DNA of 64,000 nt, from contig OZ004595.1 of the NCBI GenBank assembly GCA_963924555.1, positions 2,914,001 through 2,978,000 on the forward strand, given 5' to 3'. Source of the DNA: Crambe crambe (Eukaryota > Porifera > Demospongiae > Poecilosclerida > Crambeidae). The notes under the pieces are model-generated. The model did not search any database. It saw nothing but the letters and a program-made list of their open reading frames with translations, and was not told where the DNA came from. Position numbers and translations under genes: made by a program. Positions 11,099 to 48,700 of the stretch are shown here, one piece after another (position 1 is the stretch's first letter; the number at the start of each line of letters is the position of its first letter).

Positions 11099-12130
11099 TT
11101 CCATTCTTTTTTTTTGTGATTATGAAAATTGATAGACGCTAAAGGCTCCCTTGATTGAACTAAATTTATTTAATGATCAGTATTTCATTCTGTTCAGGGA
11201 GGAGAGTTTGAAGGATGATCATCTGCAGTGTAATGGAGTACTGAAAGGAGTGAACATTTTAAAAAGTGAACAGCATTAGCTAATTGTTACATATGTGATC
11301 ACTGAAATAATTATTGAGATGGTACGTATGTCTTGCTTGAGGGAGGAGTATGGGGAGTTTATGCATTTGGTGTAGTGATCATAATAGTGGATGCCATCAA
11401 ATGGCCACATCCTGTGCAGGTGTTATATGAGGAGAACTGCTATTAATTGCCCCACCCCTTTTATGAGGTAATATCGTGAAGATTTTTTTCATACGAGGCT
11501 GAAGCACATTATAGATAGCCCAGCTAGATTTTAGGCTATCCCTACTTAACCTTTTTATTTGAAGAAATTTTTTACGCTCACTTGTTTTTATCCTTTTTCT
11601 TAGTGCTTGAAGTTGAATGAGGGAGGCTACAGTACAGTACTATACAAAGCCAGCTCTACATAAACCTCTTTTGTAGGTACATACAGTGTCTCTGGTTGAA
11701 GAATTTGTTTAGCTATTTAAGTTTTGTTGATATAAAACTTTACAGCAACAGCAATGTAAATGACATGTACACGGCATGGTGAAGTGAGCTGACTACACTA
11801 CAGCAAAGTACTGGCTATAATGCTACTATAGGATGAGCATCTGTACTGTAATTCAGCAAGGAGTGACTGGAACATCATCAGATAATGAATGAAGACCTTG
11901 GCTATAGCTAAACTTAAGCTTACGTGGCTCCGCCCATAAGCCCCGCCCCCTTCAAAATGGCGTAGAAAGATTAGCAGCTGTGTTCCGAGTGCTATCGAAT
12001 AGTGAAGTAGAGCCTTAGTCAAAACTAATAGCAAAAGATCAGCCTCTAGGTGCCGCTCTAACAGATGGCCAAAGCAGAATTTTGATGACTATAGCCAGTA
12101 AGTCGGTACGTCGATCTTATTATTATTATT
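10650..12130. repeat. 1.48-kb intronic repeat unit, copy 2
   Basis: The second tandem unit starts 1479 bp after the first and is almost identical, with its own 449-bp palindrome (10650-11098) and terminal TTA run. Small differences from unit 1 include an extra gaagaaatt segment near 11560 and changes mirrored in both palindrome arms. Confidence 0.9.
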
Positions 12131-12823
12131 ATAAAGAAAAAGAACGAAAAGTCAATTTTAGAACTCGTTTTTTTCTTATGTTGGCGAATGAATTTTTGGC
12201 TTTTGAACATTCTCCTCTCTTCTTTGTAGATATAATAATTCACTGTAGCCTTCTGAGAACCTGTAGAGTAAGGGTAGAAGAGAAAGAAGAGTTTTTAGTT
12301 TATACTGTCCTATGGACTTTGACCTGCCATCCCTACTTAGAGAGTGCTACCGCACTCTCTGATAAAGAAAAAGAACGAAAAGTCAATTTTAGAACTCGTT
12401 TTTTTCTTATGTTGGCGAATGAATTTTTGGCTTTTGAACATTCTCCTCTCTTCTTTGTAGATATAATAATTCACTGTAGCCTTCTGAGAACCTGTAGAGT
12501 AAGGGTAGAAGAGAAAGAAGAGTTTTTAGTTTATACTGTCCTATGGACTTTGACCTGCCATCCCTACTTAGAGAGTGCTACCGCACTCTCTGATAAAGAA
12601 AAAGAACGAAAAGTCAATTTTAGAACTCGTTTTTTTCTTATGTTGGCGAATGAATTTTTGGCTTTTGAACATTCTCCTCTCTTCTTTGTAGATATAATAA
12701 TTCACTGTAGCCTTCTGAGAACCTGTAGAGTAAGGGTAGAAGAGAAAGAAGAGTTTTTAGTTTATACTGTCCTATGGACTTTGACCTGCCATCCCTACTT
12801 AGAGAGTGCTACCGCACTCTCTG
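12131..12823 (+). repeat. Three tandem 231-bp repeats
   Basis: Three units begin at 12131, 12362 and 12593. They look identical and each is exactly 77 codons, so one plus-strand frame stays open through all three. Each unit ends in catccctacttagagagtg followed by a perfect 9-bp-arm hairpin (AGAGAGTGC-TACC-GCACTCTCT). The array ends 7 bp before the 3' splice site of the intron (AG at 12829-12830). The translation resembles no protein I know, so I treat the array as intronic repeat. Confidence 0.9.
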
Positions 12824-14342
12824 ATAATAGGTTCAACAGTGGAAGTTTTTACCGATTCAGACAACACCCTCATGGGTATCATGTTTCAGGATGGTATTAT
12901 GAAAACAGTCTTTTCAGCTTACCCAGAACTGCTACTTGTAGATGCTACATATAAACTTAATGACCTACGGATGCCAGTTTATCTTCCGATGTCAATTGAT
13001 GGAAATGGACAAGGAGAGATCATTTTAGTTTTCCTTACACAGCTTGAAACAGAGGCAGCGCTATCGAAAATGGTGCAGGCATTTAAACTACATAATCCTA
13101 AATGGAAGGAGACAAGGGTGATTATGAGTGATAAAGATTTTAATGAAAGAAGTGTATTCCGAAAAGAATTTCCAGATGCTGTTTTACACTTGTGCTTGTT
13201 TCATACTCTTCGATCTTTTTGCCGAGAGGTGACATGTGATAAACTTGGAATCAGGCCCGGTGAAAGGGATCATGCTTTGGAACTATTCACTAAATTGGTT
13301 TATTCAAAATCTGAGAATGAGTATGATGAAAATTATCAAGAACTTTTACAACCAGGTCTTTCAACTGTTATTTCCTACTATATTATTCACTGGCATCCAA
13401 TTCGTCTTGAATGGGTTGAGTGTTTTAAAGGTGTAAACTTTTCACTTGGTGAAACTACAAATAATAGGCTGGAGAATATTAATGGTAAAATCAAAAGTGT
13501 TTGTAACAGGTACATAATGTATGATATTTAATAAACTATAATAATTACATGTATTCATCCTATTAGGTATAATAGTCTTAAATTTTTTGAGCAATTTTGT
13601 GCTGTGCTTTCTTCTCTTTGTAATGAGCGTGATCACAATACTCTCATGGCTATGATAAAAAAGAGAGTAGACTTGCAGGATCCAATTGTGATCGACTATT
13701 CATCAATTCTTACGCCTTATGCTTTGGGATTCGTATCACAACAATTAGTCCTCAGAAAGAAGATAAATGTTATTCAGGACTTTAGTGAAGAGTGTTTTGT
13801 TACCTCGTCCCAAGGCAACTGAGAGTTGTCAATGCTCCTTTTGGAACACTATGCATTTACCTTGCCGACATGTGTTTGCTGTCAGGGAAAGAAAAGGTCT
13901 CCCTTTGTTTATTGACAACATTATTGGTTCTGATCGTGCTAGAAGTGTGTTGTCTCAACATCAGAAATTTCATAAGGCTACTAAAGTTACCCAAATACTT
14001 GCTTCCCTAGCTTCAGAGGGTGGCATGGACCAATTTAATGAGAGATTTGGACTTCTGAAGCGACTAAGGGATGAGTGGGCCAGTGGTGGAAGGGTCGTTC
14101 TTAGTTCCATTACCATATCAGGTGATAATGCATTGGCAAGTGTTCAATGGTATCTTTAATACATACTGTTGTTTCTGATACACATTGGTCATTAATATTT
14201 ATGAGATTTTCAGGCAACTATATAATTATAACTTCTGATTTTGGTGCTGAAGAAAGTTCTAGGCCCCCTCATTGCCTTCAATATTCTGTTATTGTGTGTA
14301 TACTGTTACTGAATACTGACTCAATCTCGTAATGTGACACTC

Positions 14343-21842: not shown

Positions 21843-21944
21843 CAATTTTCCCCCGTTTGTTGGGGATTCGTAATCTCTCAGTAATCTTCCGTGACGTATG
21901 ACGTAACAGTGCTGCGTCCAGTACCGCCAGTTCTCAGAACTTTG

Positions 21945-23280
21945 CGGATTGTGTGTTATACGCCCTATCTCAGCTTGGAAAATCTAATCTAGAGCTGAAG
22001 AAGGAGCAACGGCAAGCAATTATCGGGGTGAAGACGTTTTTGTTTCTTTGCCAACTGCATGGATTTGGCAAAAGTATCTGTTTTCAGGTACTCCCTTTCC
22101 TCTTTGACCGTAAGCGTGGATTGGTTGGTAGAAGTTGTGCTAGAAGTTGTGCTATCATAATATCTCCACTGATTGCTCTGATGATTGACCAAGTTGGAAG
22201 TTTGAGGAGAAGTGATGTTTATCTCTGGCACAAGGGAGAGCAGCATTGTGGATAAGGAACTTGCCAGTCTTGTCTTCTCATCTCCAGAAGCCCTCACATA
22301 TCCAAAGTGGAGAGAAGCTCTGGAAAATCCCCTCGTGTCAAGCCGTGTGTGTGCTGTTGTCATTAATGAAGCTCACTGTGTGTCAAAGTGGTAAGTTGAA
22401 AGCTAATCCACAACAACTACCCTGTAGAAAATTAATGTTACTAGCTGTAATATTGAACATAACATTATAGGAGCAAGGACTTTAGGCCAACTTTTGGGCG
22501 TCTGGCAGAGGTGCGTGCCTTAGTGCCACCACGCACTCCATGGATGGCCTGTACTGCTACAGCTTCTAGGCATGTAAAGGAGGAGGTGATCGATATAGTC
22601 TTGAGATGTCTGACTGCACTGAGGTCACTGCTTCTCCAGATCAGCCCGACATTTACTATGAGGTTAAGCCTCGGACTGACATAGACACCGCCTCTCGTTA
22701 CACCTTAAGGGAAAAGACAGTCCATGCTCCCAGAGTGCTGGTGTATTGCCAGTCACTTGACACTTGTGCTGACCTCTATGCCCACTTCCACTATGAACTA
22801 GGGGATGCTTCATACTACCCTCAAGATTCTCCTCACCTTAGTGACTACCGGCTTTTTGGAATGTTCCATGCAGGCACAACTCGGTACAACAAAGATGTTA
22901 TCCTCAAGAGCCTCCTGGATCCTGACAGAATCGTGCGTGTTGTATTTGCTTTAGGCATGGGCATTGATCTCAAGGATGTGAATAATGCTATTCATTATGG
23001 TGCCCCACAGAGTCTGGAAAATTACTTTCGGGAGAGTGGTAGAGGAGGTAGGAGTGGTGGAGATGCAGTGTCCACTGTATACTGGAAGCCTGTTGATTGC
23101 CCAGTGAGGAAGCAACCAGTGACTCTCAGAGATCATGAACTTATTACAGTAAGGAAGTATGTAGAGAATGTCACAGCATGCCGACGAAAATGGCTTCTGG
23201 GTTATTTTGACATCCAGTTTGATGGTAAGCCAAGTCGCTGTTGTGACAATTGTTCAAATAGGACTGTGGATGGAGAGTGA
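21945..23280 (+). pseudogene. RecQ-like DNA helicase, frameshifted
   Basis: Recognisable SF2 helicase order: motif I split by an apparent 4-base insertion (catg, near 22060) so that LPT and GFGKSICFQ lie in different frames; Ia (IISPLIALMIDQV); motif II as NEAH (VVINEAHCVSKW); an intron 22391-22470; motif III (ACTATASRHVKEEV); V (FALGMGIDLKDVNNAIHYG); VI (ESGRGGRSGGDA); and the RecQ zinc cysteines (CRRKWLLGYFD ... CCDNC), ending at 23280. Further frame changes occur near 22215 and 22610. A working copy would be a 3'-5' helicase; this one cannot make the full protein. It is more divergent than cellular RecQ/BLM/WRN proteins and probably belongs to a mobile family, since a fragment recurs at 23994-24056. 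Confidence 0.75.
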
Positions 23281-26765: not shown

Positions 26766-28547
26766 TTATGATTTTGTTAGAAATGTTTCAGATCTAATGA
26801 GGTCCATTTGAGAAGGGGGAGATCTTGATGCGAACCCACTCCTCGAACGAGCACCCCGAATACACTGGATAGCAGATCTGAGTAGAGAGAAAGTGATGGT
26901 GCATCTCAGCCAGTCAATGGTTAAACTATACGGTTGTTCCCATTTTGTAGCTAGTAAGGAAGCCAGACGTTTATAGAATATAGTTGCCTCTCTTGCAAAA
27001 CCACCAGTAGCTGAGAGAACCAGTGGAGTAAAGGAAGCATGCTCGATTTCTCTTACCCTCTGTTCATATGCTCTTTTCTTAAGTCTCTCATGGTTCCTAT
27101 AACAAGATGACAGGGTGGATTTCTTATTTGAAGGAGCATGCGGGTTGAATATCCTCACATCTATGAAGGTTTTCTCGTGTCTTCCACCCCATAACCCGTT
27201 GACTGAAATATCTAGACGGGCACCATCATCTCCAATTGCACTAGCTCCGGAAAGCACTTCCCCAGTGAGAGCTTGCAGGCCAGGCTCTATCTTCACATCA
27301 TTACAAACTTCGGAGAGCAAATTAGCAGTAACATCTCTTATCTCGCTATGCCTAATGATAGGAAAACCCCCTCTTGGACATGAAAGTGAATGTTCAATCG
27401 AAAAATTTTTCCCGCAATCACAATTAGTGGGTAAATATGAAAATTGCCATCCATATCTTAGGGCTAAAGCATCATGGAAGGCACCTTTATGAAGAGCAAA
27501 TCCATACTCATCAATTGGCAATGTGGTTAACCAACTGGAGGCACCTTTTTCAGAAGCAAGATCCATAGCTCTCTTAAGATTGTCTGGAAGAAATTGCTTT
27601 ATTCGAGAGGCTTCTGTAGAGGATTTTGCACAATTCAAGTTGTGTACTTCAGCCTTGGCTTTCATCTGCTCACTCATGATTTCATATGTATAGTCAGGAA
27701 CTTGTGATAAAATAGCCTTTTTCAATGGCTCAGTGACTTTGAGAGAAGCCAAGAACTGAGAATCAGAATCTTTCAGGGGATTGGTTAAAGCGATGCCACC
27801 CAATCTAGCTGGTAAGGATAGAAGGTCACGTTCATTGTCATTAAAAGGAGGTTGGTTAGTTAGATTTGGAGCAAATCTTGTTCGGATAATTTCTTCAAGT
27901 GGATGGATAAGAGCACATATATCAGGAGTAACACGTGAGAGGTAACGCCACTTACTACATAACCCATGAGTAAGTACAGCATGAGCAGCATGAGGTTGGG
28001 TTTTAGCAATCTTACTAAGAAGTTCAATTTCCTCTGACCACTCAGATACTTTTGATACGACAAATTTTTTGATATACTCAGGTGTACCAAGTGGAGCCCC
28101 AAGATGAGGCCTACCTTCCGAGGTTACTTTCACACTAGTATTCTCGAAAGCATCGATAGCTTTGGTGAAGAATGATTTTTTGGTGATAAGCCAAGACTTG
28201 GAGGCATTGGCATGATATCCATATTTTGGACCCTCAGAAACAATTTTGTCCCACCAGTTCCTCAGGTGATTGATAGATCCTGTGGCAGTTGCATCATCAG
28301 CATACCAGGTTTGGCATACTTTACCATTCAACTTATTAATGAGGGGAATTGTGGCAATGGCATACATTGCCATTGCAAGGGGGTCACCTTGTGTAGTGCC
28401 TTCTTTTGAATACAGCACATCACCATCCACAAAGAGTTCTGTTGGTTCCCGGTAGGAATTCATGAGGATATTTGCAATTGAAGGACAGAGTCTTCTGATA
28501 TTCTGTAAAGCAGTTTGCCTATTGAGAGAATTGAATGCATTGGATGC
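26766..28547 (-). pseudogene. LINE RT with restriction-like endonuclease domain, 3' part
   Basis: The frame runs uninterrupted from the transposon junction to the stop at 26766. RT motifs: catalytic motif A (LVDASNAFN, at the junction), motif B (EGTTQGDPLAMAMYA), the catalytic YADD box (WYADDATATG) and thumb. Then come a C-x-C...H...C zinc knuckle (CDCGKNFSIEHSLSC) and a PD-(D/E)xK-like segment (ARLDISV ... TFIDVRIFNP). RT followed by knuckle and restriction-like endonuclease is the layout of R2/CRE/NeSL-type LINEs. The clade is not certain. Coding is broken because residues before motif A lie 7.5 kb away. Confidence 0.75.
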
Positions 28548-28556
28548 ATCTACCAG

Positions 28557-29005
28557 GGTCCTAGTGATTTTTGCATAAAATATAAAGAAATCCCTAGAGT
28601 TACTCTAGGGAATGATTTATGCAACCCATCCCTAGAGTTACTCTAGGGAATGATTTATGCAACTCATCCCTAGAGTAACTCATGGGAAGAAATTATACAG
28701 ACTGTGTTTTGCATAATTTCTGTGTTATAAGCAATTTTATTCTTTATTGGGGAGGAATTATGCAAAGTCCATTCCAGAGTAAAACCCTACAATTAGCTAG
28801 TAATGGCCTATGAATATCATTAACATCTCCTTTGCATAAAATAGTCCCATATAGTATACATCATTCCACTGTCAAGGGAAGGAATTATGCAAGTCCAGTG
28901 AAGAGTAAAATCCTGCCATCAATTTATAATGACACTATGAATATCGTTACAATCGTCTACAGTACTGTTTTACATAAAATAGTCCCATATAGTATACATC
29001 ATTCC
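28557..29005. repeat. Left terminal inverted repeat
   Basis: About 450 bp, near-identical in inverse orientation to 35670-36118. It contains two tagagttactctaggg palindromes followed by aatgatttatgcaac, then further ttatgcaa/ttgcataa boxes. On its inner side, an approximately 130-bp block (cattccactrtcaagggaag ... gagtaaaaycctgcc) is repeated at about 28861, 28998 and 29134, so the left end has extra units that the right end lacks. Confidence 0.85.
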
Positions 29006-29427
29006 ACTATCAAGGGAAGGAATTATGCAAGTCTAGTGAAGAGTAAAACCCTGCCATCAATTTATAATGACCCTATGAATATCGTTACAATCTTCTATGG
29101 TACTCTTTTGTATGAGTACAGGGAATAGCCCATCTTTCCACTGTCAAGGGAAGGAATATAATATACAAGTCCAGTGAAGAGTAAAACCTGCCAATCAATT
29201 AAATTTTATAATAACGCTATGAATATCAGGATTATGCAAGACTGAGTCTCCACATGCATAAAATGAACTGTCCAAAAATTTTGATTTGATAATGGAAGGA
29301 GTGATTAAAGTAGCTGCTAATTTTCTAGCAACTGTATATACGTATAGCTATTATTGAGATGAGTGACCTTGTTGCATGGCATGAATTTGCTAGCATATAG
29401 TGTTATTATTGTAAGTTTAATCGTTCA

Positions 29428-32400
29428 TTACGAAAAAATGATATCGTCTGCTTCCTCCAAGGGATCAATGTACACAGTTTGATTGTCGCTAGGGAAATAT
29501 GCACCATATTTCCCAGTTTGTGGGTCGAAATGCAATATCTGTGCATCAAACCACTCATACTTGTTAGTACCATTAATTTTGAACTTCATTTTCAGGTTAC
29601 GGCCAAGAAACTTTTTATTACATTTATGAAGCCTTGCTTTGCCTGAAGTTTGGGGGATAAAATCGTCATCATTATTTGCTAGTCTTGGACGCTTGGAATT
29701 AAATCCACAAGCTCCACCTGACCTTTTTGTTCCCTTTGTTTTCTCACTTGATGGTTCAAAGTGGCATTGACGATCTGGTGGCCCATACTGAGCACTTTGG
29801 TCTTTGCTTTGAGCTGAATTTTTCCTCCGAATATTTCTTTTAATGGCTGCTAACTTTCTACCCTTCTCACTTTTATCACAATATGAAAGTGAAATATTGT
29901 GTATTGCAGCTATGTGTTTAGCACATGCTGCTTTGTCATATTTGTACAAATTGACCATAGCAGTTTGAAGTGGCTGTGGCAGTGAATCCTTGCTGTCAAA
30001 GTTCTTCCTTTCTACAGCATTAGTATCTGATGGGCAGCGGTCCCAGACAGAGTCAAGCATTGCTGAATAGTCTTTGTGTAAAAGGTTCAAATGACGAGGG
30101 TTAATCCACCATTCCACCCACTTTGTAGCTGCTGTCCAATCTGTCTTGGAGTCAATAAAGGAAGCATCTTCTTTTGTTAGACCATCTACTGGACCTACAA
30201 GAACATGAGCTGAAGCCTTTTTACTGATAACTTCAAATGCATGCTGAACATCATTTCCTGCAGGTAGTTTAGGTATTGCTGAAGCAATCAATGAGAAAAG
30301 TGCTTTTTCACGTTCTTTGTCTTCAGAGGATGAAATACGATCTCTGACTCTTTGCCATGACCGTGTCCAATGGACTTTGCATCCTTTTAGAAGTGTGGAA
30401 GCCAATTCTTTCCCCACAGCCTTTCCGAGTCCTTTTATTTCTGCATCTGACCAGTCTATTACAATGCCGAGTAAGTTCTTTCCAAGTTCAAAATTTTCAC
30501 ATTCAGATTTACACTTCAAAAAGGTCTTTGAATAAGCTAAAGCATATGCATTTGCATCTTGCTTGTCCATTCGAATTCGACTCACTACCATCCAGTCCAT
30601 TGTTGTATAGTTGAATGCCACCATATTAAAAAGGTAACGATAATCTCTGGTTTCATTATATGTAATATCAGCCTCAACAAACTCTGAATCTGCCAATAGA
30701 GAGCACATCAAGGGATTCATACAAAAAACGTAACTGATACCCTCTTCAATGCCAGCAGATACCAAGTACGGTCTTGCCAGTTTTTTTATTTGGTGTACAT
30801 CACCTTCATTCCCTGTCAGTTCTTCATCCTTCACATCAATTGCATCTGCTACTTTTTCGAAGCTCGATGGTTCCCAGTTTGAACCAGCTGCAGTTCGTAA
30901 CTTGGTTTTCTTGACTTCACGAGATATCTTTCCAATGTGATTACTAGCTTTATCAATAGCACCAGGAACTGCATGTACTCCTTTACCTTTAGCAATTTCA
31001 CATGGTTTAAGACTAGGATTAATTTCTATAGCTTTGACTATCATTTGTTTCACTTTGGAACAGATTTTTGATGAGTTATGCATTGGATGATTGTGAAGTG
31101 AATCACAAGAGGTTTTCTGATGCCGCACAAAAGCAAACAACCAACGTCTGTGGTCTTCAGATACATTTTTTGGATAAATGTAAGCTATTTGCACAGGGCA
31201 AGGGTCACTGGAGTTGGTTTTTACAAGCTTTTGTGAAGGGTGCTCACCACATGGTCTCTGCGCTGTTAATGGTACCACATAATTGCAAGAATCAGCAGGG
31301 CAAGCTTTCACACCATTACATGATGCTACTCTGTACATCACTTTTTCTGAGGATCCATTAATCAAAACACTGACCTCTCTGTCCTTATTCCATCCACTTT
31401 TTGATATCTGTATATCTTCCCACATGTAGTGTGGATCAGAAGTAGACTGAGGCATGTCCATACAATTGGGAGTGTAAAAGGCTCTCTGTAACATTGCAGT
31501 CGAAAATACACCAGGAAATTGATACTCATTTTTACTAGAGATTACTTGCCAATTTTCACAGTCCTCCAATAATGATTTAATAGCTGTAATTGCATGACTT
31601 CCTTTACCAGCACGAACAGCTCTTGTACTTGTGGGTTCAGCTCTATCATCTGATTGTGCAGTACTAAGTCTTGCTTTTCTCAACCTTTCACAATTGTTGT
31701 CATCATTTAATAGCCATTGAGGAAGCAGCAACTGTTGGCCAGACTCAAGAGCAGATATGCCTCCATCGGTTTTGTTTATAATCCCTTGAATACCATAATG
31801 TTGGCTTTTCTTGATTATTGACCTCAATTGCTTTTTAGCTAGTCCAAGAACATGGCACTTTCTAATAAATGTTCTCCACCATTTTTCACTGTGTCCCCTT
31901 GAATTTCCATATGACATGGATGATTTATCATGGAGATTAGTCCATGCTAAAGAGGTACCTCTGATCCATTGTGTGATTTTGAGTTCACCTTTAGGACCAA
32001 GGACATCAATTGCATTATAGAGAATCTCTAATTCTTTTATCATGTCAATTTCACAAACTTCAGATTCATTGCTGCATACATCACAACATTCGTTGGAACT
32101 TGATACAGTTTCGGTTTCTTCACCAACAAGTTCTAGCAACATTTTTCTACGACATTTATTTGCAAGATCTGCCATCACATACTTCCAAGAGTCTGAAAAC
32201 TCATTTAAAATTCGGCTGCAATGGTCATGATTGACAAGATGACCTTTTATCCATGCACCAGCATGATCAACATTAGATAAATTGTAGAATATTGTTGCTT
32301 TAGCTGGCTGACCATTTCTTCCAGCACGCCCAAGTTCTTGGGCCCAACTACACATGTTTTCTGGAACACCATAGCGGATAATATGCCGAATATCTGGTTT

Positions 32401-33780
32401 ATTAATACCCATACCAAATGCACTTGTTGCGACCATTACTTTCACTTCTCCATTTTTCCACTTTTCAAAGCTCTCACTCCTTGCTTTAATGTCCATCTCA
32501 CCATAATAAGCAACTGAGTCGATCCCATTTTCACTTAGCTCACTCATTATAAGGCCAACATTATCAATGAAATCAGTGTAGATTATAGCACATTCTGGAT
32601 CCTGTAATAACTCTGTAACCCGTGATGCAAAATAAGAGAAATTCTTTTTTCCCATACATGGCATTTCTTCACATGCAAGAGTGACATTTGGCCTGTCAAT
32701 GCTACCTTTAGTAACAATTGGGTTTCTCAGTAGTTGACTAATACTGTTTTCCACAGGAGGTGGAGCAGTAGCAGTTAGGCATAGCAATGGAATTGATGGA
32801 AACACATCTTTCAGTATTTCTAAATTCTTATAAGCTGCCCTAAATTCTTGCCAGTAGTGAAACAAATGTGCCTCATCCAATGCAATTAAACAAACTTTGC
32901 TCTTGTTGATAAGATGCTTTAGCTTCTCTTTTTTATCTGGTTTTGATATCCATTCTGGAGTCACTAATACAATTTTTGCATCACTTTCTCCAGACAATAC
33001 ATGATCCTCTTTTTGGCGATCCAACTGAGCTGATCCCAAGAAGATAGCTTTAATCCCGTACTGTTCACAATTTTTTACATGATCTTGCATTAAACTTATT
33101 GTTGGTGTTATTACTATTGCAATTTTATTCATGTATACGGCAGGGAATTGAAAGCATAATGACTTACCACTGCCAGTTGGTTGGATCACTAAACAGTCAC
33201 TTCCAGCACATAAAGCCTTAACAATCTTCTTTTGGTAATCTCTGAATTTTGTAATACTAAACTTTTCAGCCAAGGTCATGATCATAGATGCTTCTTCAAA
33301 TGCTGCACTAGTGTTTGGTGAGTCAGTGATCTCATCATCCCAAGAATTTAAACTAGTCTCTTGGGCAGTAAAATCAATATTATTTGCATCTAATGTGGGT
33401 TGGCTTAAATCTTGCACTGAGCTAAAAGATTCTTCACTAATAATCTCTGGATTATGAGAGGACCGTGAAGGATGTTTATGGAATTTGGTACAGCAGTCGG
33501 AACAAAATATTTTTGAATGGCAATCCCTGCAGATATGTGTTCCACTATCAAAGCAAATTTCACAATTCTTAGCTCCACCTTTTAGTGCTAGAGATAACAT
33601 AACTATACTGCCATCTAAAATAGCCGAAATGTTATTTTCTGTTAGAATAGATCTCTTATAAATGTATCGCTGACACTTTTCAGGGATTCCTGTTTCAGCA
33701 TACACTTGTTTTTTTAAATTAATTAGATTGCCATCAAAACGATATTGTTTCACTCTGCCATATTGATCTTGGACATACAA
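29428..33780 (-). CDS. Ubl-B-box-RecQ helicase-MULE transposase-Tudor-like fusion protein
   Basis: A single exon of 1450 codons. Residues 1-69 are ubiquitin-like, ending LALKGG. 73-109 is a B-box-like finger (CEIC...CRDC...CSDCC...H). 172-500 is a RecQ helicase: PTGSGKS (201-207), DEAH (302-305), LTATAP (335-340), AFGMGIN (454-460), QELGRAGRNG (481-490). 543-570 carries RecQ-type zinc cysteines. About 580-690 is winged-helix-like. 800-905 is a Cys/His region like FLYWCH/WRKY-type DNA-binding fingers. 1030-1260 is a MULE DDE core: D1038 in EADITYN, D1109 in VIDWSD, C1134-x2-H1137, E1257 in NAVERKN. About 1393-1440 is Tudor/agenet-like (FLGRNLKMKFK ... WFDAQILHFDPQTGKYGAYF). The RecQ half could unwind ends or forks while the DDE half cuts and joins; that division of labour is inference. 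No break is seen. Confidence 0.85.
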   Translation of the reverse strand: MYVQDQYGRVKQYRFDGNLINLKKQVYAETGIPEKCQRYIYKRSILTENNISAILDGSIVMLSLALKGGAKNCEICFDSGTHICRDCHSKIFCSDCCTKFHKHPSRSSHNPEIISEESFSSVQDLSQPTLDANNIDFTAQETSLNSWDDEITDSPNTSAAFEEASMIMTLAEKFSITKFRDYQKKIVKALCAGSDCLVIQPTGSGKSLCFQFPAVYMNKIAIVITPTISLMQDHVKNCEQYGIKAIFLGSAQLDRQKEDHVLSGESDAKIVLVTPEWISKPDKKEKLKHLINKSKVCLIALDEAHLFHYWQEFRAAYKNLEILKDVFPSIPLLCLTATAPPPVENSISQLLRNPIVTKGSIDRPNVTLACEEMPCMGKKNFSYFASRVTELLQDPECAIIYTDFIDNVGLIMSELSENGIDSVAYYGEMDIKARSESFEKWKNGEVKVMVATSAFGMGINKPDIRHIIRYGVPENMCSWAQELGRAGRNGQPAKATIFYNLSNVDHAGAWIKGHLVNHDHCSRILNEFSDSWKYVMADLANKCRRKMLLELVGEETETVSSSNECCDVCSNESEVCEIDMIKELEILYNAIDVLGPKGELKITQWIRGTSLAWTNLHDKSSMSYGNSRGHSEKWWRTFIRKCHVLGLAKKQLRSIIKKSQHYGIQGIINKTDGGISALESGQQLLLPQWLLNDDNNCERLRKARLSTAQSDDRAEPTSTRAVRAGKGSHAITAIKSLLEDCENWQVISSKNEYQFPGVFSTAMLQRAFYTPNCMDMPQSTSDPHYMWEDIQISKSGWNKDREVSVLINGSSEKVMYRVASCNGVKACPADSCNYVVPLTAQRPCGEHPSQKLVKTNSSDPCPVQIAYIYPKNVSEDHRRWLFAFVRHQKTSCDSLHNHPMHNSSKICSKVKQMIVKAIEINPSLKPCEIAKGKGVHAVPGAIDKASNHIGKISREVKKTKLRTAAGSNWEPSSFEKVADAIDVKDEELTGNEGDVHQIKKLARPYLVSAGIEEGISYVFCMNPLMCSLLADSEFVEADITYNETRDYRYLFNMVAFNYTTMDWMVVSRIRMDKQDANAYALAYSKTFLKCKSECENFELGKNLLGIVIDWSDAEIKGLGKAVGKELASTLLKGCKVHWTRSWQRVRDRISSSEDKEREKALFSLIASAIPKLPAGNDVQHAFEVISKKASAHVLVGPVDGLTKEDASFIDSKTDWTAATKWVEWWINPRHLNLLHKDYSAMLDSVWDRCPSDTNAVERKNFDSKDSLPQPLQTAMVNLYKYDKAACAKHIAAIHNISLSYCDKSEKGRKLAAIKRNIRRKNSAQSKDQSAQYGPPDRQCHFEPSSEKTKGTKRSGGACGFNSKRPRLANNDDDFIPQTSGKARLHKCNKKFLGRNLKMKFKINGTNKYEWFDAQILHFDPQTGKYGAYFPSDNQTVYIDPLEEADDIIFS

Positions 33781-34574
33781 ATGCTTGAGTAATCCAGAAT
33801 CTCCTACAAAATTTATTGAATGACTTGTAATAACAATTGAAGGAACATAAGTCTTAACATAATAGCATTATACATTGTATGAATACTTGCTGGCAAGCTC
33901 AGCCCTGTTTGCAACACGCTATAACTACAGAGATCACATACCCTATGCTTTGCTGTTTAATGAAGGTACTAGAATGATAGTTGATTTATGAACTTGGAGC
34001 AGTAATAGCATGCTACATTTATATAGAATGTGCAGTAGCTACAATTGTGATGTGATGTACGTATAATGCTGATGATGTAATAATAAGACTAAGAGGTGTA
34101 AGAGAAAGTTCTGAGCTATTAATTTCACTGAAGGCCTTGGTAACACAATGTCATGTGTCTTGTTAGTAACACTATATAACTAGAATAATCAGTCCGCATG
34201 AATTTTGCATGCCGCATAATATTTTGTAGTTGGTAGCTAAGGGCCAAATTACGTTTAATAAGAATTGAGCTTCATGGTTTTGCTAGATTTATGTGGCAGC
34301 AAAAAACAGTTGGTTGACTTCTGAGGTTATAAATGGAGTAAGTATGAATGTGTAGTTTTGCTGGAAATTTTTTGGGGCACATATACCTGTATATTTAGCA
34401 ATCATTTTACCCCTTGCTCTGCAAGAATTTGCGCATGTGCAAGATAAATTCGAGCAAAATAATACTGTCATATAAATGCAATGGTCTTATTTAGCAAGCA
34501 TGAATTTAATTGTGCACTGTCGACAAAATTTGTGTCAACCCTGAAAAACATAGTATAACTCAGCACACAAGTTA

Positions 34575-34715
34575 AAGTGCTTTGCAAGTTAGTTGGTATC
34601 CTAGCTGCAGTTGTAAGTATGTAAACTCTATATTGTGCACTACTGAAAACACAATAGAGAGTTTACATACTTACAACTGCAGCTAGGACATGAAATCTGC
34701 CAACTTGCAAAGCAC
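34575..34715. repeat. Inverted repeat (hairpin) inside the transposon
   Basis: Arms of about 60 bp (gtgctttgcaagttagttgg ... tagctgcagttgtaagtatg and the complement) flank a short loop around 34640-34655. It lies just 3' of the small membrane-protein gene. It may be a nested small element or a folded transcript end. Confidence 0.75.
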
Positions 34716-34784
34716 TGTATGTACAGTTGTACAAAAGTTCGAAGGTTAAAATATCATTGGTTACTTGGAAGGAGGGACTATAAC

Positions 34785-35356
34785 ACACAAGTTAAACTTA
34801 CCAAGAACAGGATTTGCCTTTGTATTTTCTCTGTAAAGCGTTAACTGGGTGGCTTGGACATGAACCAGATGTCTCTCTCTGACACGATTGATATAGTGTG
34901 AATAAATACACCACACCATATACACTAGAAATGTCCCAACTGCTACAATACTGAAGATTGGGTGGAAAAAACGGAGATAGCCAATGCTTGTTGATGGATT
35001 CAAAGCAATAGCATTAGAACCTAGTGAAAATGCTTGACTAACACCGAGTAACTTTACAAGGCCACAATTTCCATGGCTTGAATGATAAGGAATAACAGCT
35101 CCACTACTATTAGCACTGGCAACTAGACACAACTGTACATGTTGAAGATGGTACCCAAAGGAGTCAATGTTTCGCATAGTACAAGGAATAGATGCAGAAC
35201 TCTCCAACCTATGATAATATGATGTATTATATAAATTGGCTAGAAGCAAACCCATGCACTTGAAGTTAGTTAAAAATACCTGAACAATCCTGTGTCCTTA
35301 CTTGTAGTGCTGAAAAGCACTGGTAACAGAAACAAAATGAACAAGAGCATCTTCAT
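34785..35356 (-). CDS. Small signal-peptide/transmembrane protein inside the transposon
   Basis: Exon 1 is 35356-35280, beginning ATGAAGATG: a hydrophobic signal peptide (MLLFILFLLPVLFST). Intron 35279-35209 has GT and AG in place. Exon 2 starts at 35208 and keeps frame (LFR-LESSASIPC). The ectodomain is about 75 residues with several cysteines, followed by one membrane span (IFSIVAVGTFLVYMVWCIY) and a basic, short cytoplasmic tail (RVRERHLVHVQATQ). Exon 2 may end at a GTAAGT near 34799 or read on to a stop at about 34761. I recognise no family. It sits between the transposase gene and the right terminal repeat, on the same strand as the transposase. It is either a captured host gene or a transposon accessory gene. 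Confidence 0.6.
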
Positions 35357-35669
35357 CTTTAACTCACAGACTAACTTTCCCGCCAAAAACGTGGTAATAT
35401 TATTGGTGACCTTTGTCAGGATGTGGCAAATTGGAAATTGAACCTCGCTCTAACGGCTGCATTTTTGTATAGCTACAATGGCTTAAACACAGTAAGCTAT
35501 AACTACTGCATTGTTTGTCAAAATAGCATGTACCCCAGGCCCCTCTGACGCTGGTGATATGTTCAATGTAGCTAGCTATCACTATACAAAAAAAACAACA
35601 ACAAAACAACAGAAGTTTAATTCATATCAATGCATGAAGGATTTTACTCCTCATTGGAGAGTTTAGTGG

Positions 35670-36118
35670 AATGATGTATACTATAATGGGACTATTTAAT
35701 GCAAAACAGTACAGTGGACGATTATAACAATATTCATAGTGTCATTATAAATTGATGGCAGGGTTTTACTCTTCACTGGACTTGCATAATTCCTTCCCTT
35801 GACAGTGGAATGATGTGTACTATAATGGGACTATTTTATGCAAAGGAGATGTTAATGATATTCATAGGCCATTACCAGCTAATTGTAGGGTTTTACTCTG
35901 GAATGGACTTTGCATAATTCCTCCCCAATAGAGAGTAAAATTGCTTATAACACAGAAATTATGCAAAACACAGTTTGCATAATTCCTTCCCATGAGTTAC
36001 TCTAGGGATGAGTTGCATAAATCATTCCCTAGAGTAACTCTAGGGATGGGTTGCATAAATCATTCCCTAGAGTAACTCTAGGGATTTCTTTGTATTTTAT
36101 GCAAATGTCTATTTGACC
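35670..36118. repeat. Right terminal inverted repeat
   Basis: Complement of the left terminal repeat, with the same internal palindromes and ttgcataa boxes. It ends at ttgacc (36118), followed by the 9-bp duplication. Confidence 0.85.
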
Positions 36119-36260
36119 ATCTACCAGCAATACTGCCTCGGTATCTTCTTGTTGGAAAGATTCTCTCACAGCATGTACTGCAGCCTCAATACCAGATATC
36201 TGGCCAGCGCATAGTTGCAAAACTCCAGCTGCATTTTGTACATCTCCTCTGATGACACTT
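36119..36260 (-). pseudogene. LINE RT 5' piece beyond the DNA transposon
   Basis: The minus-strand frame reads GDVQNAAGVLQLCAGQ, then EAAVHAVRESF, then EAVLLVD, and stops at the transposon. The last three residues (LVD) are the duplicated target codons and continue as LVDASNAFN on the other side at 28556. This proves that the two parts were one RT gene. Sequence upstream of about 36260 is unrelated. Confidence 0.85.
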
Positions 36261-36343
36261 AATACTTAATGGGCCGGCCATGGGCCGGGCGCGCGCGGCG
36301 TTTCCTATCCCATGGCCCGCGCCATGCCCTAGAGTTTTTCATT

Positions 36344-42700: not shown

Positions 42701-45700
42701 ATAACAATGAAAGAAATTTCACATGAAAATTCACAGCTTCAATTACACTACTTTTGTTAGTTTATTTAGAGCCAACGTGAACATGTGAACATGTATGATA
42801 ATGCATGGGAAGGAGTGTAATTTGATAATTCACTAAGGCATTACCTTACCCCATTCACTATAAATGCTATAACTATCACAATTCTTAACCAAATTTCAAG
42901 TACCAGCAGAGAGAGTGGACGATCAGCTTTCTGTTCATGCATTTGGTTAAGAATTGAGAAAGTTATAACAATTATAGCGAATGACCAAGGGGCAAGTTAT
43001 TTTCCATGAACTGCTCAACTATAGCCATCACTGGGAAAGTGATAACCATATCCTGACATAGGTGGGATACATTATTTGACCAAAACACGACTGATCTCTA
43101 TCACAGGTGGATTAGCAATAGCTAGATGTAGGCACGCCTATTGATGACAACTTTATATTTTGTAGACTGTACTGATGTATTGAAATTGGATGAATTATTG
43201 AACAAGGATGAGTGCACTAAGATTATCAAATTCTTATTAGAAAGTTCATTACCATGGCAGGGCAAACACATGAAATACCTGGTACTGAAAAGTGAAATAC
43301 CTGGAAGTGGAATAGCATCTTCTTTATCATGTGATCTGTCCGTGTTTCCGTGGAAAAAGCTCTATAAGAAAAGCAACTTGAAGAAAGAGCTGATTCAAGC
43401 TATCATGTTACTAGGAGGAGTAATTACAAATAATGATATTTCAACCCTCATACAGAAGGGCGAAAATGAAGATATTGATGTTTTGAGATTAGTTTTGGAT
43501 GAATGTACCCCAGAACTAAAATCTATCAATTTAACCTCGCTCTGTCAGCAAGCTCTGAATCATAAGAAGTTGAGATTCGTAGACATGTTAATATCGAAAG
43601 GTGCCGAACCTGATGTATCCGACTTAGCTGATGTGGTGAGTATTCAAGATAATATGTCTCAAGCTTTGAATGTCATAACTTATCTCAAATCGAATCCTGA
43701 GGGTTGTACAAAGCTGCTCTTAAAAGCTGCAGAAAAAGCAAAATATACCTTGGCAGAAGAATGGATACAAAAAGAGAGCAGAGAATTGAATCAAAGTATG
43801 ATTGATCTGAGCATAATAATAAGCTCCAAAATGAGTGGCAATACAAAAGAGAGAGAAGAGTTTGTCTTGTTTATAAAAAATCTTCTACAGTACGGAGCTA
43901 ATCCAAATGGAATCGGTGAAATTCGCCCACTTGATGCAATATTAGAGCACCCACAACTATCTAAAGAATATTCAGCAGAAAAGATACAGCTTCTTTTGAT
44001 TTTAATAGAGGGTGGTGCATCTATAGAACATTGCACTTTCCCAAGAAAGAATCAAACCACCCTATTACATATTGCTACAGGGCTAGCAATTAAGCATGAA
44101 TCAGGTACATAACTACAGTAATATCCGTAGAAATCCCTCACTAGTGTGGGGCTTGCTTCAAAGTAATGGTGTATAAATAGAAGAACTTGACCATAGCCAC
44201 TAAAAAAAAAAAAAAAAAGTAATCTAGTAATCCTAATAATAATATTTGTTTTTGTTGTTATTATTATTAGACAATGCTTTGAAGTTACTTGAAACAGTGT
44301 GTAAATTCTACCCTTTTGGTGAAGTAGAAAATGGGAAGATTCCTGACAAAGATGGGAAAACTCCATATCATATCGTAATGGAATGCAAATACCATCAACA
44401 TTTATACAATATATGCGAAATTCTAAGCAAATATCCCATAAATCCAATTTGTCCCGATAATCATGGGAAGAGACCGGGGGAAGGAAGAAAAAATGATAAA
44501 AGATGCACCATCTTACAAGAGAAAGGGAAAGAGTTTCAAAAACCTCAAAGCAAAAGCTCAAAGAAAAGTAAAACTGGTGCTTCCAAAGGTAAGGGCAGAA
44601 ACACTGCTTCCTCTGATCCATCAAAATCAGATCTTGAGTCTTCCAATATGCAACAGCAACATCAACAGCCACAGGCTACTGCATTAGATTCTGATTCAAT
44701 TCTACAGGGCGTGAAAGAAATGTTAGACATACTGTCAGAGAAGCCACCATCATATTTTGAACCACCTGCAAACTACAAGAGACAGGCAAGTTCAACTGCT
44801 TCCAATCAACCACGAGTATTGTCTCCTACTGTATCAATAGAAAATGAGCAATCAACCACACCAGTTCATGTGAAAGAATGTGGTAATGAACCTCAAGATA
44901 TTGATATCGATGAAATCGATAAAAATTTTGAAGATTGTCCTTGGGAAGTTGAATGTACTGAAAAGGTGAAGAAATTTCTTGCAAATACCAAGATACCCTT
45001 AAGTGAGAGAAAAGCTGCAGTCAAAAAAATCAGAGTGTTAGCTAACGGAATACAGATATCCAATCAAAAGCTATGTAAAGAGGTTCGAACAGATTCCAAG
45101 ACTGATTCAAAGTTGTATCGGGCGAAATTCACAAAAGGTGGCAGAATAATTTGGGAAATCGCTGTTCAGTTCTCACCTCGTCTGACACAACCTTTTGCTG
45201 AGGGTGACACAAAAAAAGAGCAAAACAAGTATATTTTCACACAAGTTATTCGATTGTGGGATATAGTATTAGACCACGATAATTTAACCCGAGCTATTGA
45301 TCACGTTGTAGATCGTATCAGGAAATCACAGTCAAGAGGAGAAAAGGCTGCCATTCGAATCCCACTTAATATGGGAAAAGATCAAAGACAGCACACCCAA
45401 GACCAAAGGCAACACACCCGAGGTCAAGAACAACTGCTATATCCACAATGCTATACATGTGATGAATCTCAATCAATATCAATGGCAGTACAACCTCGAT
45501 TTACCCCTGCTGGTAGCACCAAAGAAGACGAATATAACGTCATTACCTTCTATTCATTTGATTCTTCATTTGTTAAGAGCATGTTGGGTGGAGATAATGC
45601 AAGAAGGGACTTTCCCTTCAAAGAATGGCACAAAGAGCATGACATCATCAGTATGCCAGAGGGAAAAGTCTCTATCTTACTTCTAGGTCGCAGTGGAACA

Positions 45701-48700
45701 GGTAAAACCACTTGCTGCTTGTATCGTCTTTGGAATCAGTTTCAAAATTATTGGCTGAAGACTGAAATATCAGAACCTCTTGTACCACGAAAAAAGCTTG
45801 CTATTCTCGATGATGGTGATAATAAAATCGATAATCTTGGAAGTAACAGTCATACTGATGCAGAACTCGCAGATGACTTGCAAGAGGAAAAACCAAATGG
45901 AGTTACAGAAGCATCAGATCCTGAGTTGGAGCATTACCACCAAATCTTTATCACTAAAAACTATGTTCTCTGTGCTCAAATGAAGAAGCGTTTCTATGAT
46001 TTAGCAGCAAGCAGAGACATGGCAAATGATCACATGCCATATGAAGAAGTTGATATACCAAACAGTCTCTCTGACATACAAGACTTGGCTTACCCTCTCT
46101 TCCTCACAGCAAGGCAGTTCTTTTTATTGCTCGATAATTCACTGGGCAATGATAATAAGAACTTCTTTGCACGAGATGAAGAAGGAAGACTGAAGGAGAA
46201 ATTGCTGAGCTCTGATTATGACCATGAAGATCCCGACACACTCCTAGACCTGGAGGAGAGTGACAGTGAAGAAGAGGACTTAGAATTTGATGATGAAGTA
46301 CACCCTAAACCTCAAATGGTTAAGAGGAAGTTGCGAGAAAGAAGAGAAGTGACTGCATCCTATTTTGCTGAAGTCATTTGGCCAAAAATCTCAAAAAATG
46401 TCACTTTACAAAATGCCAAGATTGATCCTCTTCTAGTTTGGATGGAAATTAAATCCTTTATCAAGGGATCCTCACTAGCTGCTGAGACGGCGAGTGGATT
46501 TTTAAGTCTGGAAGAATATGAATGCATAGGAAAGAAGATGGCTCCAAATTATTCTGACAATAGGGAAGATATTTATAAGATCTTTCAGCTGTACAAGGAT
46601 TATATTCAGCAGAACCGAAAAGAAGACAACATATTTGATGAATGTGATCTCACTCATAGCATCTATACCAGGCTTAATTCACTCAAAGACCTGCCGTGGT
46701 CCATTCACAGCATCTACATCGATGAAGTCCAAGACTTCACTCAAGCCGAGCTCTCTATCTTAATCCGCATATGCAGAGATCCAAATAATCTCTTCCTCAC
46801 TGGGGACACAGCTCAAAGTATAATGAGAGGGATATCTTTTCGATTTAGTGACCTCAGAAGTTTATTTCACTGTGCTTCGAATCAGGTGGCTAAGAAAGTC
46901 AGAGTGCAAGTGCCAGAGGTCAATGAACTTACCATCAATTTTAGATCACACACAGGAATTTTGAGACTAGCTGCAAGTGTGATTGATCTAATGAAGCATT
47001 TCTTCCCCAGTTCATTCGATCGCCTTCCAGGTGATGAAGGAATGTTTGAAGGCCCCATCCCCATGGTTCTAGATTCTTGCAACATCAGCGATCTAGCTTT
47101 GGTCCTGAGAGGAAATAAGCGAGAATCGTCTGCAATTGAATTTGGAGCACATCAAGTCATCATTGTACAATCCGAAGAAGCCAAGAAAAATATCCCTGAT
47201 GTGCTCAAAGCTGGTATAGTACTCACAGTGTTCGAATCTAAAGGTCTGGAATTTGACGATGTTCTAATGTACGATTTCTTCAAGTATTCCCAAGTAGGTT
47301 ACATTAGTACAATAATAAACTATACACCATTAATAATGTTTTATGCAGGTTGATAAAGATTGGAGAGTTGTAACTGCATTCATTGAAGAGCACCCAGACT
47401 TGATATCAAACAAGAAGAAGATATTTGATGAACCAAGAAGACTAGAATTTGATGAGAGGCAACAGAAGTCATTGAATGCTGAATTGAAGTATCTATACAC
47501 AGCTATCACTCGTGCTAAATGTAACCTCTGGATATACGACTCTGATAAAGATAACAAGCTTCCTATGTTTGATTACTGGAATAAGAGAGGATTGATCAAA
47601 ATAGTTCAAGTTGGTGATGATGTGACAGAGCAAAGTGGTTTATTTTCAGCAACATCTTCTAAAGAAGAATGGAAGTCACAAGGTGACTATTTTCGGAAGA
47701 AAATGTTGTGGGAGCCAGCCATGAAATGCTATCAAAAGGCAGAATGCCCTCATCTTGAATCCGAAGCTAAAGCTTACAGTCTTGCTCAACAAGCCCATGC
47801 TCCCGATCTCAAACCAAGTGAAATTCGAGAGAACTACCTGAGAGCAGCACATGCATTCTTGGAGTGTGATAAATCTGAAAATAGTTACCAGTGCCTTGAA
47901 AATGCAGCAAAATGCCTCAAGAATGCCAAGAAATACAGCGAGGCTTCACAATTATATGTTTCCCTCGGCCAAGTAAGTGAAAATTCATTAATATTAATAG
48001 CTATCCTTATCATTTTGAACTTCTTGTAGCTGCAATAGCTAGTATATTAATGATGTTTTATTTATACCTTTGTTTTGCAGTATGATAAAGCTCTTAAAGG
48101 ATATAGAAAAGTCAAAAATGTTGAAGGCTTTGCAAGAATAAAGGATAAAATGGGTGATCGAAATGGAGCAATTCGCCTTTTACTGAAGAATAATCGCATT
48201 AAGGATGCCTTGATATATGCCCAAAGGTATGAATCAGAAGGCCAAGAAATTTCCAAAGTCCATACAGTAGATTACATTGCAAATGAATATATCAAGAAGT
48301 TGAAAAAAAACAAGATGAGAAATCAAGAGGAAATTGAAGCCATCAGGCAATACATACCACAAAGTCAGCAAGTAAGCTTACTCAAAGCAGCTGGTATGCT
48401 CAAAGAAGCTTGTGATCTCTTAATTGCCAATGGTGAGCTTAATGAGGTATACAGGATATACAGAGCACAAGGTTGGTATGACGAAGGTATTCAATTAGCT
48501 ATCACCAAAAAAGACAGAGCTATATTTGTCATGCTCAAAGCTACTGAAGAAATGTCAGGTGAATCAGGCATGCTTGAAGAGAGAACAAAAAAGGTCCTTG
48601 CTAAAGAAATAGGACATAGCAATGACACTGAAGCAAAAGCCACCTTGATTTACGGGAAGGCAATGCAGAACCACAAAACATTAGGAGATATGCTTCTCCA

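What the first reader, a model, noticed from the sequence alone, without database searches (positions are those of the whole stretch)
28557..36118. Complete transposon whose transposase is fused to a RecQ helicase
Seen: inverted ends, a perfect 9-bp target duplication (atctaccag), and one uninterrupted 1450-codon gene carrying RecQ motifs (PTGSGKS, DEAH, QELGRAGRNG) and, further on, a MULE-type DDE core (EADITYN, VIDWSD, C-x2-H, NAVERKN). Known: MULEs make about 9-bp duplications. I know of no described MULE superfamily with a RecQ motor in the same polypeptide. Inference: the helicase may open transposon ends or push repair or replication during transposition, giving a mixed cut/replicate mechanism.
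Basis: partly seen in the sequence, partly recalled or inferred. Interest (0 to 1): 0.92.

Follow-up and report, generated by a model that had tools for sequence, protein, structure and literature searches.

The report
Transposon with fused RecQ-helicase transposase
This is an intact-looking animal-type jumping gene whose cutting enzyme is fused to a RecQ DNA-unwinding motor; helicase-carrying transposons with this insertion footprint are already described, but this one also carries a ubiquitin-like domain and a chromatin-reader-like domain that may be new.

Summary
A 7,562-bp element (28557-36118) has long inverted ends (96% over 442 columns), a perfect 9-bp duplication (a 10-bp reading is possible) and sits in a reverse-transcriptase gene whose frame returns when the element is removed. 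Its gene joins a RecQ helicase to a DDE core. The fusion recurs: 15 of 81 relatives carry helicase and DDE motifs in one protein, 11 with both helicase Pfam domains. The modelled core is nearest to the transposase ISCth4; D, D and E are nearly invariant.

'No precedent' fails: AcademH (animals and fungi, helicase, 9-10 bp duplications) and KolobokH (fungi, RecQ) are described. This is most likely AcademH or a sister lineage, but the AcademH paper was not held, and the C-x2-H signature, not listed for Academ in a later paper, leaves a MuDR-like lineage open.

It begins with a ubiquitin fold ending in Gly-Gly at ubiquitin's own position (all 6 sequences that reach it, window included), then a B-box-like cysteine cluster, and ends in a Tudor-like domain.

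The parts
28548..28556 (.). Left target-site duplication ATCTACCAG (10-bp reading starts at 28547)
36119..36127 (.). Right target-site duplication ATCTACCAG (10-bp reading starts at 36118)
28557..29009 (+). Left terminal inverted repeat; outer part has three 38-nt units with palindrome-like cores (TCCCTAGAGTTACTCTAGGGA), inner part repeats of about 138 nt
35664..36118 (-). Right terminal inverted repeat, 425 of 442 columns identical to the left
35280..35356 (-). Predicted exon 1: ATG and a hydrophobic, signal-peptide-like start, donor GTATTT (inferred gene model)
34802..35208 (-). Predicted exon 2: about 80 residues, then a strongly hydrophobic, transmembrane-like stretch; donor GTAAGT (inferred). 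Near-identical public protein P0082; P0083 keeps 24 residues of it
29428..33803 (-). Main exon (acceptor TTTTGTAG, inferred), contains the 1450-codon frame 33780-29428
33574..33780 (-). Ubiquitin-fold domain, residues 1-69, ends LALKGG
33445..33573 (-). B-box-like Cys/His cluster, residues 70-112
32206..33285 (-). RecQ helicase core (DEAD + Helicase_C), residues 166-525
32068..32169 (-). RecQ zinc-binding segment, residues 538-571 (below Pfam cut-off)
31765..32067 (-). RQC-like winged-helix region, residues 572-672; Pfam RQC matches relatives (P0007 above cut-off), not the window protein itself
31081..31443 (-). Cys/His-rich, zinc-finger-like segment before the DDE core, residues 780-900 (inferred from conserved Cys/His)
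29956..30693 (-). DDE transposase core, residues 1030-1275: D1038, D1109, C1134-x2-H1137, E1257
29431..29634 (-). Tudor-like domain, residues 1383-1450
26766..28556 (-). Target: reverse-transcriptase ORF interrupted by the element (3' part)
36128..36265 (-). Target: reverse-transcriptase ORF, 5' part on the other side

Best explanation
An autonomous DDE transposon of the helicase-carrying kind, most likely AcademH or a close sister lineage. Shown by sequence or model: the element, its ends, its duplication, the fused protein, conserved catalytic residues of both enzymes, and the extra domains. Inferred: the DDE core binds the palindrome-rich repeats of the long inverted ends, cuts and joins 3' ends to target DNA at positions 9-10 bp apart, and the RecQ motor opens the ends or the strand-transfer joints so that host polymerases can fill the gaps. 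The Tudor-like domain probably steers the complex to histone-marked chromatin. The N-terminal ubiquitin-like domain is probably a maturation or stability module, removed after Gly-Gly by a host deubiquitinase-like protease, leaving a B-box-led enzyme.
Against: The AcademH paper (doi 10.1186/s13100-020-00211-1) was not held, so no AcademH sequence was compared. [quoted passage not shown] this family has C-x2-H. Outside GGTC the outermost 13 nt of the two ends agree only at chance level. E1257 falls in a model segment with pLDDT under 50, so its place in the active site rests on conservation, not on the model. Whole-model Foldseek scores were weak (TM to the query at most 0.11 in the 50 rows shown). 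The window's own ubiquitin-like domain is not found by Pfam and only at E 0.049. No excision, expression or second full-length copy was seen. Cleavage after Gly-Gly and all helicase steps are inferences.
Confidence: 0.65

Rival explanations
1. A separate RecQ-bearing lineage inside or next to MuDR (Mutator/IS256), not AcademH.
For: C-x2-H between second D and E, 9-10 bp duplication, top structural match ISCth4, recalled as IS256 family. PMC10045372 (passage) gives MuDR/IS256 duplications of 4-10 bp.
Against: Pfam MULE 0 of 48 and Transposase_mut 4 of 48 rows, best E 0.05. AcademH already covers animals, helicase and 9-10 bp.
Confidence: 0.25
2. KolobokH relative.
For: KolobokH is a described RecQ-carrying lineage (PMC9587614, passage); Kolobok shares C/DxxH.
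Against: Kolobok makes TTAA duplications, here 9 or 10 bp; KolobokH has RecQ downstream of the transposase domain, here upstream.
Confidence: 0.05
3. A RecQ gene fragment captured by, or misjoined to, a transposon in this one genome.
For: Another RecQ-type fragment lies at 22570-23280 in the window.
Against: 15 of 81 relatives show both halves, down to about 44% identity; catalytic residues of both halves are conserved.
Confidence: 0.02
4. The full protein begins with a signal-like peptide and a membrane segment (exons 1-2), so the transposase is made tethered to a membrane and freed at the ubiquitin-like Gly-Gly.
For: Exons 1-3 join in one frame of 1619 aa with GT/AG borders; exon 2 is 99% kept in P0082, and 24 residues of it precede the helicase in P0083. 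Relative P0003 has a hydrophobic stretch ahead of its ubiquitin-like domain, which may also be a read-through intron.
Against: No RNA evidence; only two near-identical public proteins matched these exons (2 hits at E up to 10); relatives P0004 and P0012 start near the ubiquitin-like domain without a clear membrane segment. I chose the splice joins myself.
Confidence: 0.08

Closest known systems
AcademH (Academ superfamily)
   Same: DDE transposon encoding a helicase, with 9 or 10 bp duplications (PMC10045372, passage); animals and fungi (paper title seen in reference lists); helicase described by DEAD and Helicase_C domains (PMC10799480, passages)
   Different: Not compared at sequence level. 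Ubiquitin-like, B-box-like and Tudor-like domains are not mentioned in the passages seen. C/DxxH is not listed for Academ in PMC9587614.
KolobokH
   Same: DDE transposase plus RecQ helicase; C/DxxH superfamily (PMC9587614, passages)
   Different: TTAA duplications; RecQ downstream of the transposase domain; KolobokH reported only from fungi (the same passage names one rhodophyte Kolobok with a RecQ on the other strand)
MuDR / Mutator and prokaryotic IS256
   Same: C-x2-H and duplication length; ISCth4 is the top structural match
   Different: No Pfam MULE match; no RecQ motor known to me in MuDR (recalled)
Ginger1 and Ulp1-bearing Mutator elements
   Same: Transposons tied to the ubiquitin/SUMO system (PMC2836005, PMC2528002, passages)
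   Different: They carry proteases (OTU, Ulp1); this one carries a ubiquitin-like domain with Gly-Gly, that is the substrate side

Membership tests
AcademH | Helicase encoded with a DDE transposase | tested here: met
AcademH | 9 or 10 bp target duplication | tested here: met
   definition from PMC10045372 (passage)
AcademH | DDE core homologous to Academ transposases | not testable with these tools
   no Academ sequence at hand; paper not held
AcademH | Signature residues beyond DDE as in Academ | tested here: inconclusive
   family has C-x2-H; Academ is not in the C/DxxH list of PMC9587614, AcademH itself is not stated there
MuDR (MULE) | Pfam MULE / Transposase_mut profile match | tested here: not met
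   MULE 0 of 48, Transposase_mut 4 of 48 rows, best E 0.05 (window and 47 of 81 relatives); control ORF in the window matched MULE at 1.3e-17
MuDR (MULE) | C/DxxH between second D and E | tested here: met
   C1134 63 of 64, H1137 64 of 66
MuDR (MULE) | Duplication of about 9 bp | tested here: met
MuDR (MULE) / IS256 | Catalytic fold | tested here: inconclusive
Kolobok / KolobokH | TTAA 4-bp duplication | tested here: not met
   definition
Kolobok / KolobokH | RecQ downstream of the transposase domain | tested here: not met
   RecQ 166-525, DDE 1030-1275; definition
RecQ helicase | SF2 motifs and RecQ-type sequence | tested here: met
   DEAD 1.4e-25, Helicase_C 1.1e-19; best PDB matches are RecQ-family chains; loop after DEAH
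RecQ helicase | Zinc-binding and RQC regions | tested here: inconclusive
   window protein: RecQ_Zn_bind 18.8 bits against a cut-off of 25, RQC not listed; RQC above cut-off in P0007, 5 of 48 rows at E up to 1
Ubiquitin-like proteins with processed C-terminus | Ubiquitin fold ending in Gly-Gly | tested here: met
Ubiquitin-like proteins with processed C-terminus | Cleavage after Gly-Gly | not testable with these tools
   needs a bench assay

The most novel reading that the evidence does not exclude
A transposase family (RecQ motor plus DDE core) made as a ubiquitin-like fusion: the host's deubiquitinase or NEDD8-protease machinery cuts after the conserved Gly-Gly to activate the enzyme and release a free ubiquitin-like protein, tying transposition to the host ubiquitin system, with a Tudor-like reader choosing the insertion chromatin.
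Probability: 0.3. Interest if true: 0.75.

Novelty: new variant of a known kind. Interest (0 to 1): 0.5.

Why it matters
Helicase-carrying DDE transposons are, as far as I know (recalled), described from sequence only, and what the motor does is open. This element has a readable set of parts in one chain with strong conservation, so the role of the motor, of the Gly-Gly and of the chromatin reader can each be tested by single changes. If the ubiquitin-like domain is processed, it would link a transposase to the ubiquitin system from the substrate side, where the papers seen report proteases (OTU, Ulp1) in transposons.

Tried and rejected
Pfam and PDB sequence profiles for the DDE core gave nothing usable (A3 profile 0 hits; A5 profile one hit at E 0.06 to an unrelated chain). 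hhalign of A5 against the one MULE ORF of the window gave no match; with a single sequence on one side this is weak evidence. A5 held the window and 47 of 81 relatives; I left out 34, mainly the helicase-bearing and many short ones. Viral contigs: 32 stretches matched a pattern, 1 locus (L001) encoded a relative, by residues 154-241 at 30%, a helicase stretch; not followed. Bacterial/archaeal genome contigs: 0 of 35 pattern matches. Phage records: 42 with a match to P0004; the 5 rows shown all lie in its helicase part, residues 202-686. A captured-gene or misassembly reading was dropped because the fusion recurs. KolobokH was dropped on duplication and domain order. The genome search for other copies, their ends and duplications did not complete. 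Organism: no name was obtained; the gene content looks animal, no more.

Literature: ten searches; of the papers cited I saw passages only. A ubiquitin-like domain inside a transposase of this kind did not show in the listings; I read no paper in full, and the AcademH paper could not be read at all, so it may already report it.

Full report
What is there. The region 28557-36118 is a transposon. Its two ends are inverted repeats: 294 nt at 96% without gaps and 425 of 442 identical columns with gaps. Each end carries three 38-nt units with a palindrome-like core and, further in, repeats of about 138 nt; such arrays are plausible transposase binding sites (inference). The flanks hold ATCTACCAG twice; the same repeat can be read as 10 bp, CATCTACCAG. 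Removing the element with one copy of the repeat restores a 642-aa reverse-transcriptase frame across the junction: a clean insertion into another mobile element's gene, the usual outcome of DDE transposition. One oddity: the outermost GGTC is shared by both ends, but of the next 9 nt only 3 agree, before the long similarity begins.

The gene. The open frame 33780-29428 on the minus strand is 1450 codons, far beyond the 187 codons of the longest frame in 50 mononucleotide shuffles of the window. It starts with TTG; its first ATG is codon 61, so a 5' exon is expected. A model with three exons (35356-35280, 35208-34802, 33803-29428) has GT/AG borders and one frame of 1619 aa. The two added exons encode a signal-like start and a strongly hydrophobic stretch. 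A search with them gave two proteins: P0082, near-identical, on a 658,702-bp contig, and P0083, on a 464,124-bp contig, which runs from 24 residues of exon 2 directly into the helicase exon, as expected of a copy with an internal deletion. So further copies or pieces exist, but the splice joins remain inference.

Recurrence. One search with the C-terminal half gave 7 proteins among 4331 candidates; a profile search gave 80 among the 7992 candidates scored; together 81 relatives. A motif scan finds at least one helicase and one DDE motif in 15 of 81 and all seven scanned motifs in 6 of 81; 11 list both helicase Pfam domains. Many others are short predictions, so 15 is a lower bound for fused proteins, and nothing is said about helicase-free members. 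Identity to the window protein falls to about 44% in long fused relatives such as P0012 and P0013. The fusion is therefore old and kept.

What is known. PMC10045372 (passages) states that AcademH makes 9 or 10 bp duplications and AcademX 3 or 4, and ties this to helicase and nuclease. The title of the AcademH paper (seen in reference lists) says animals and fungi. PMC10799480 (passages) names AcademH and KolobokH as sources of DEAD and Helicase_C domains. [quoted passage not shown] Academ is named there as a superfamily but not in that list. I could not read the AcademH paper. The present element meets the AcademH criteria that could be tested; its C-x2-H leaves a MuDR-like origin open. Either way a helicase-carrying DDE transposon with this footprint is not a first.

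Mechanism. Shown: a complete element, conserved active-site residues, a footprint of 9-10 bp. Inferred: the DDE core cuts and joins; the RecQ motor opens ends or strand-transfer joints and helps gap filling; the Tudor-like end reads histones; the ubiquitin-like start is cut off after Gly-Gly. Transposons that carry ubiquitin/SUMO proteases are reported (PMC2836005, PMC2528002, passages); here the substrate-like domain is in the transposase. P0083 fits failed gap repair but does not prove excision.

Noticed in passing
window 22570-23280 (+), with a possible N-terminal piece at 21902-22255: A second RecQ-type helicase fragment (Helicase_C 2.6e-7, RecQ zinc-binding 6e-8) about 5 kb from the element; its relation to the element's helicase was not tested.
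   Followed up: partly
window 12806-13531 (+): A MULE / ZSWIM-type transposase fragment (Pfam MULE 1.3e-17, ZSWIM1-3 RNaseH-like 2.5e-39); used as a control for the MULE profile.
   Followed up: partly
window 12082-12954 (+): Open frame made of three near-identical repeats of roughly 75 residues, overlapping the start of the MULE fragment: a tandem DNA repeat reading as protein.
   Followed up: no
window 34599-34688: 39-nt near-perfect inverted repeat (97%) with a 12-nt loop inside the predicted second intron of the element.
   Followed up: no
window 28557-28569 and 36106-36118: Outermost 13 nt of the two transposon ends: GGTC shared, then only 3 of 9 nt agree, while the next 442 columns are 96% alike; unusual for a working end and not explained.
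   Followed up: partly
window 59854-63813 (-); 44246-47353 (+); 55041-57350 (+): Large open frames with AAA_11/AAA_12 helicase plus many Cys-rich repeats (NFX1-like, recalled), a UvrD-like helicase match, and an NTPase-like frame with NPHP3_N and AAA_16 matches.
   Followed up: partly
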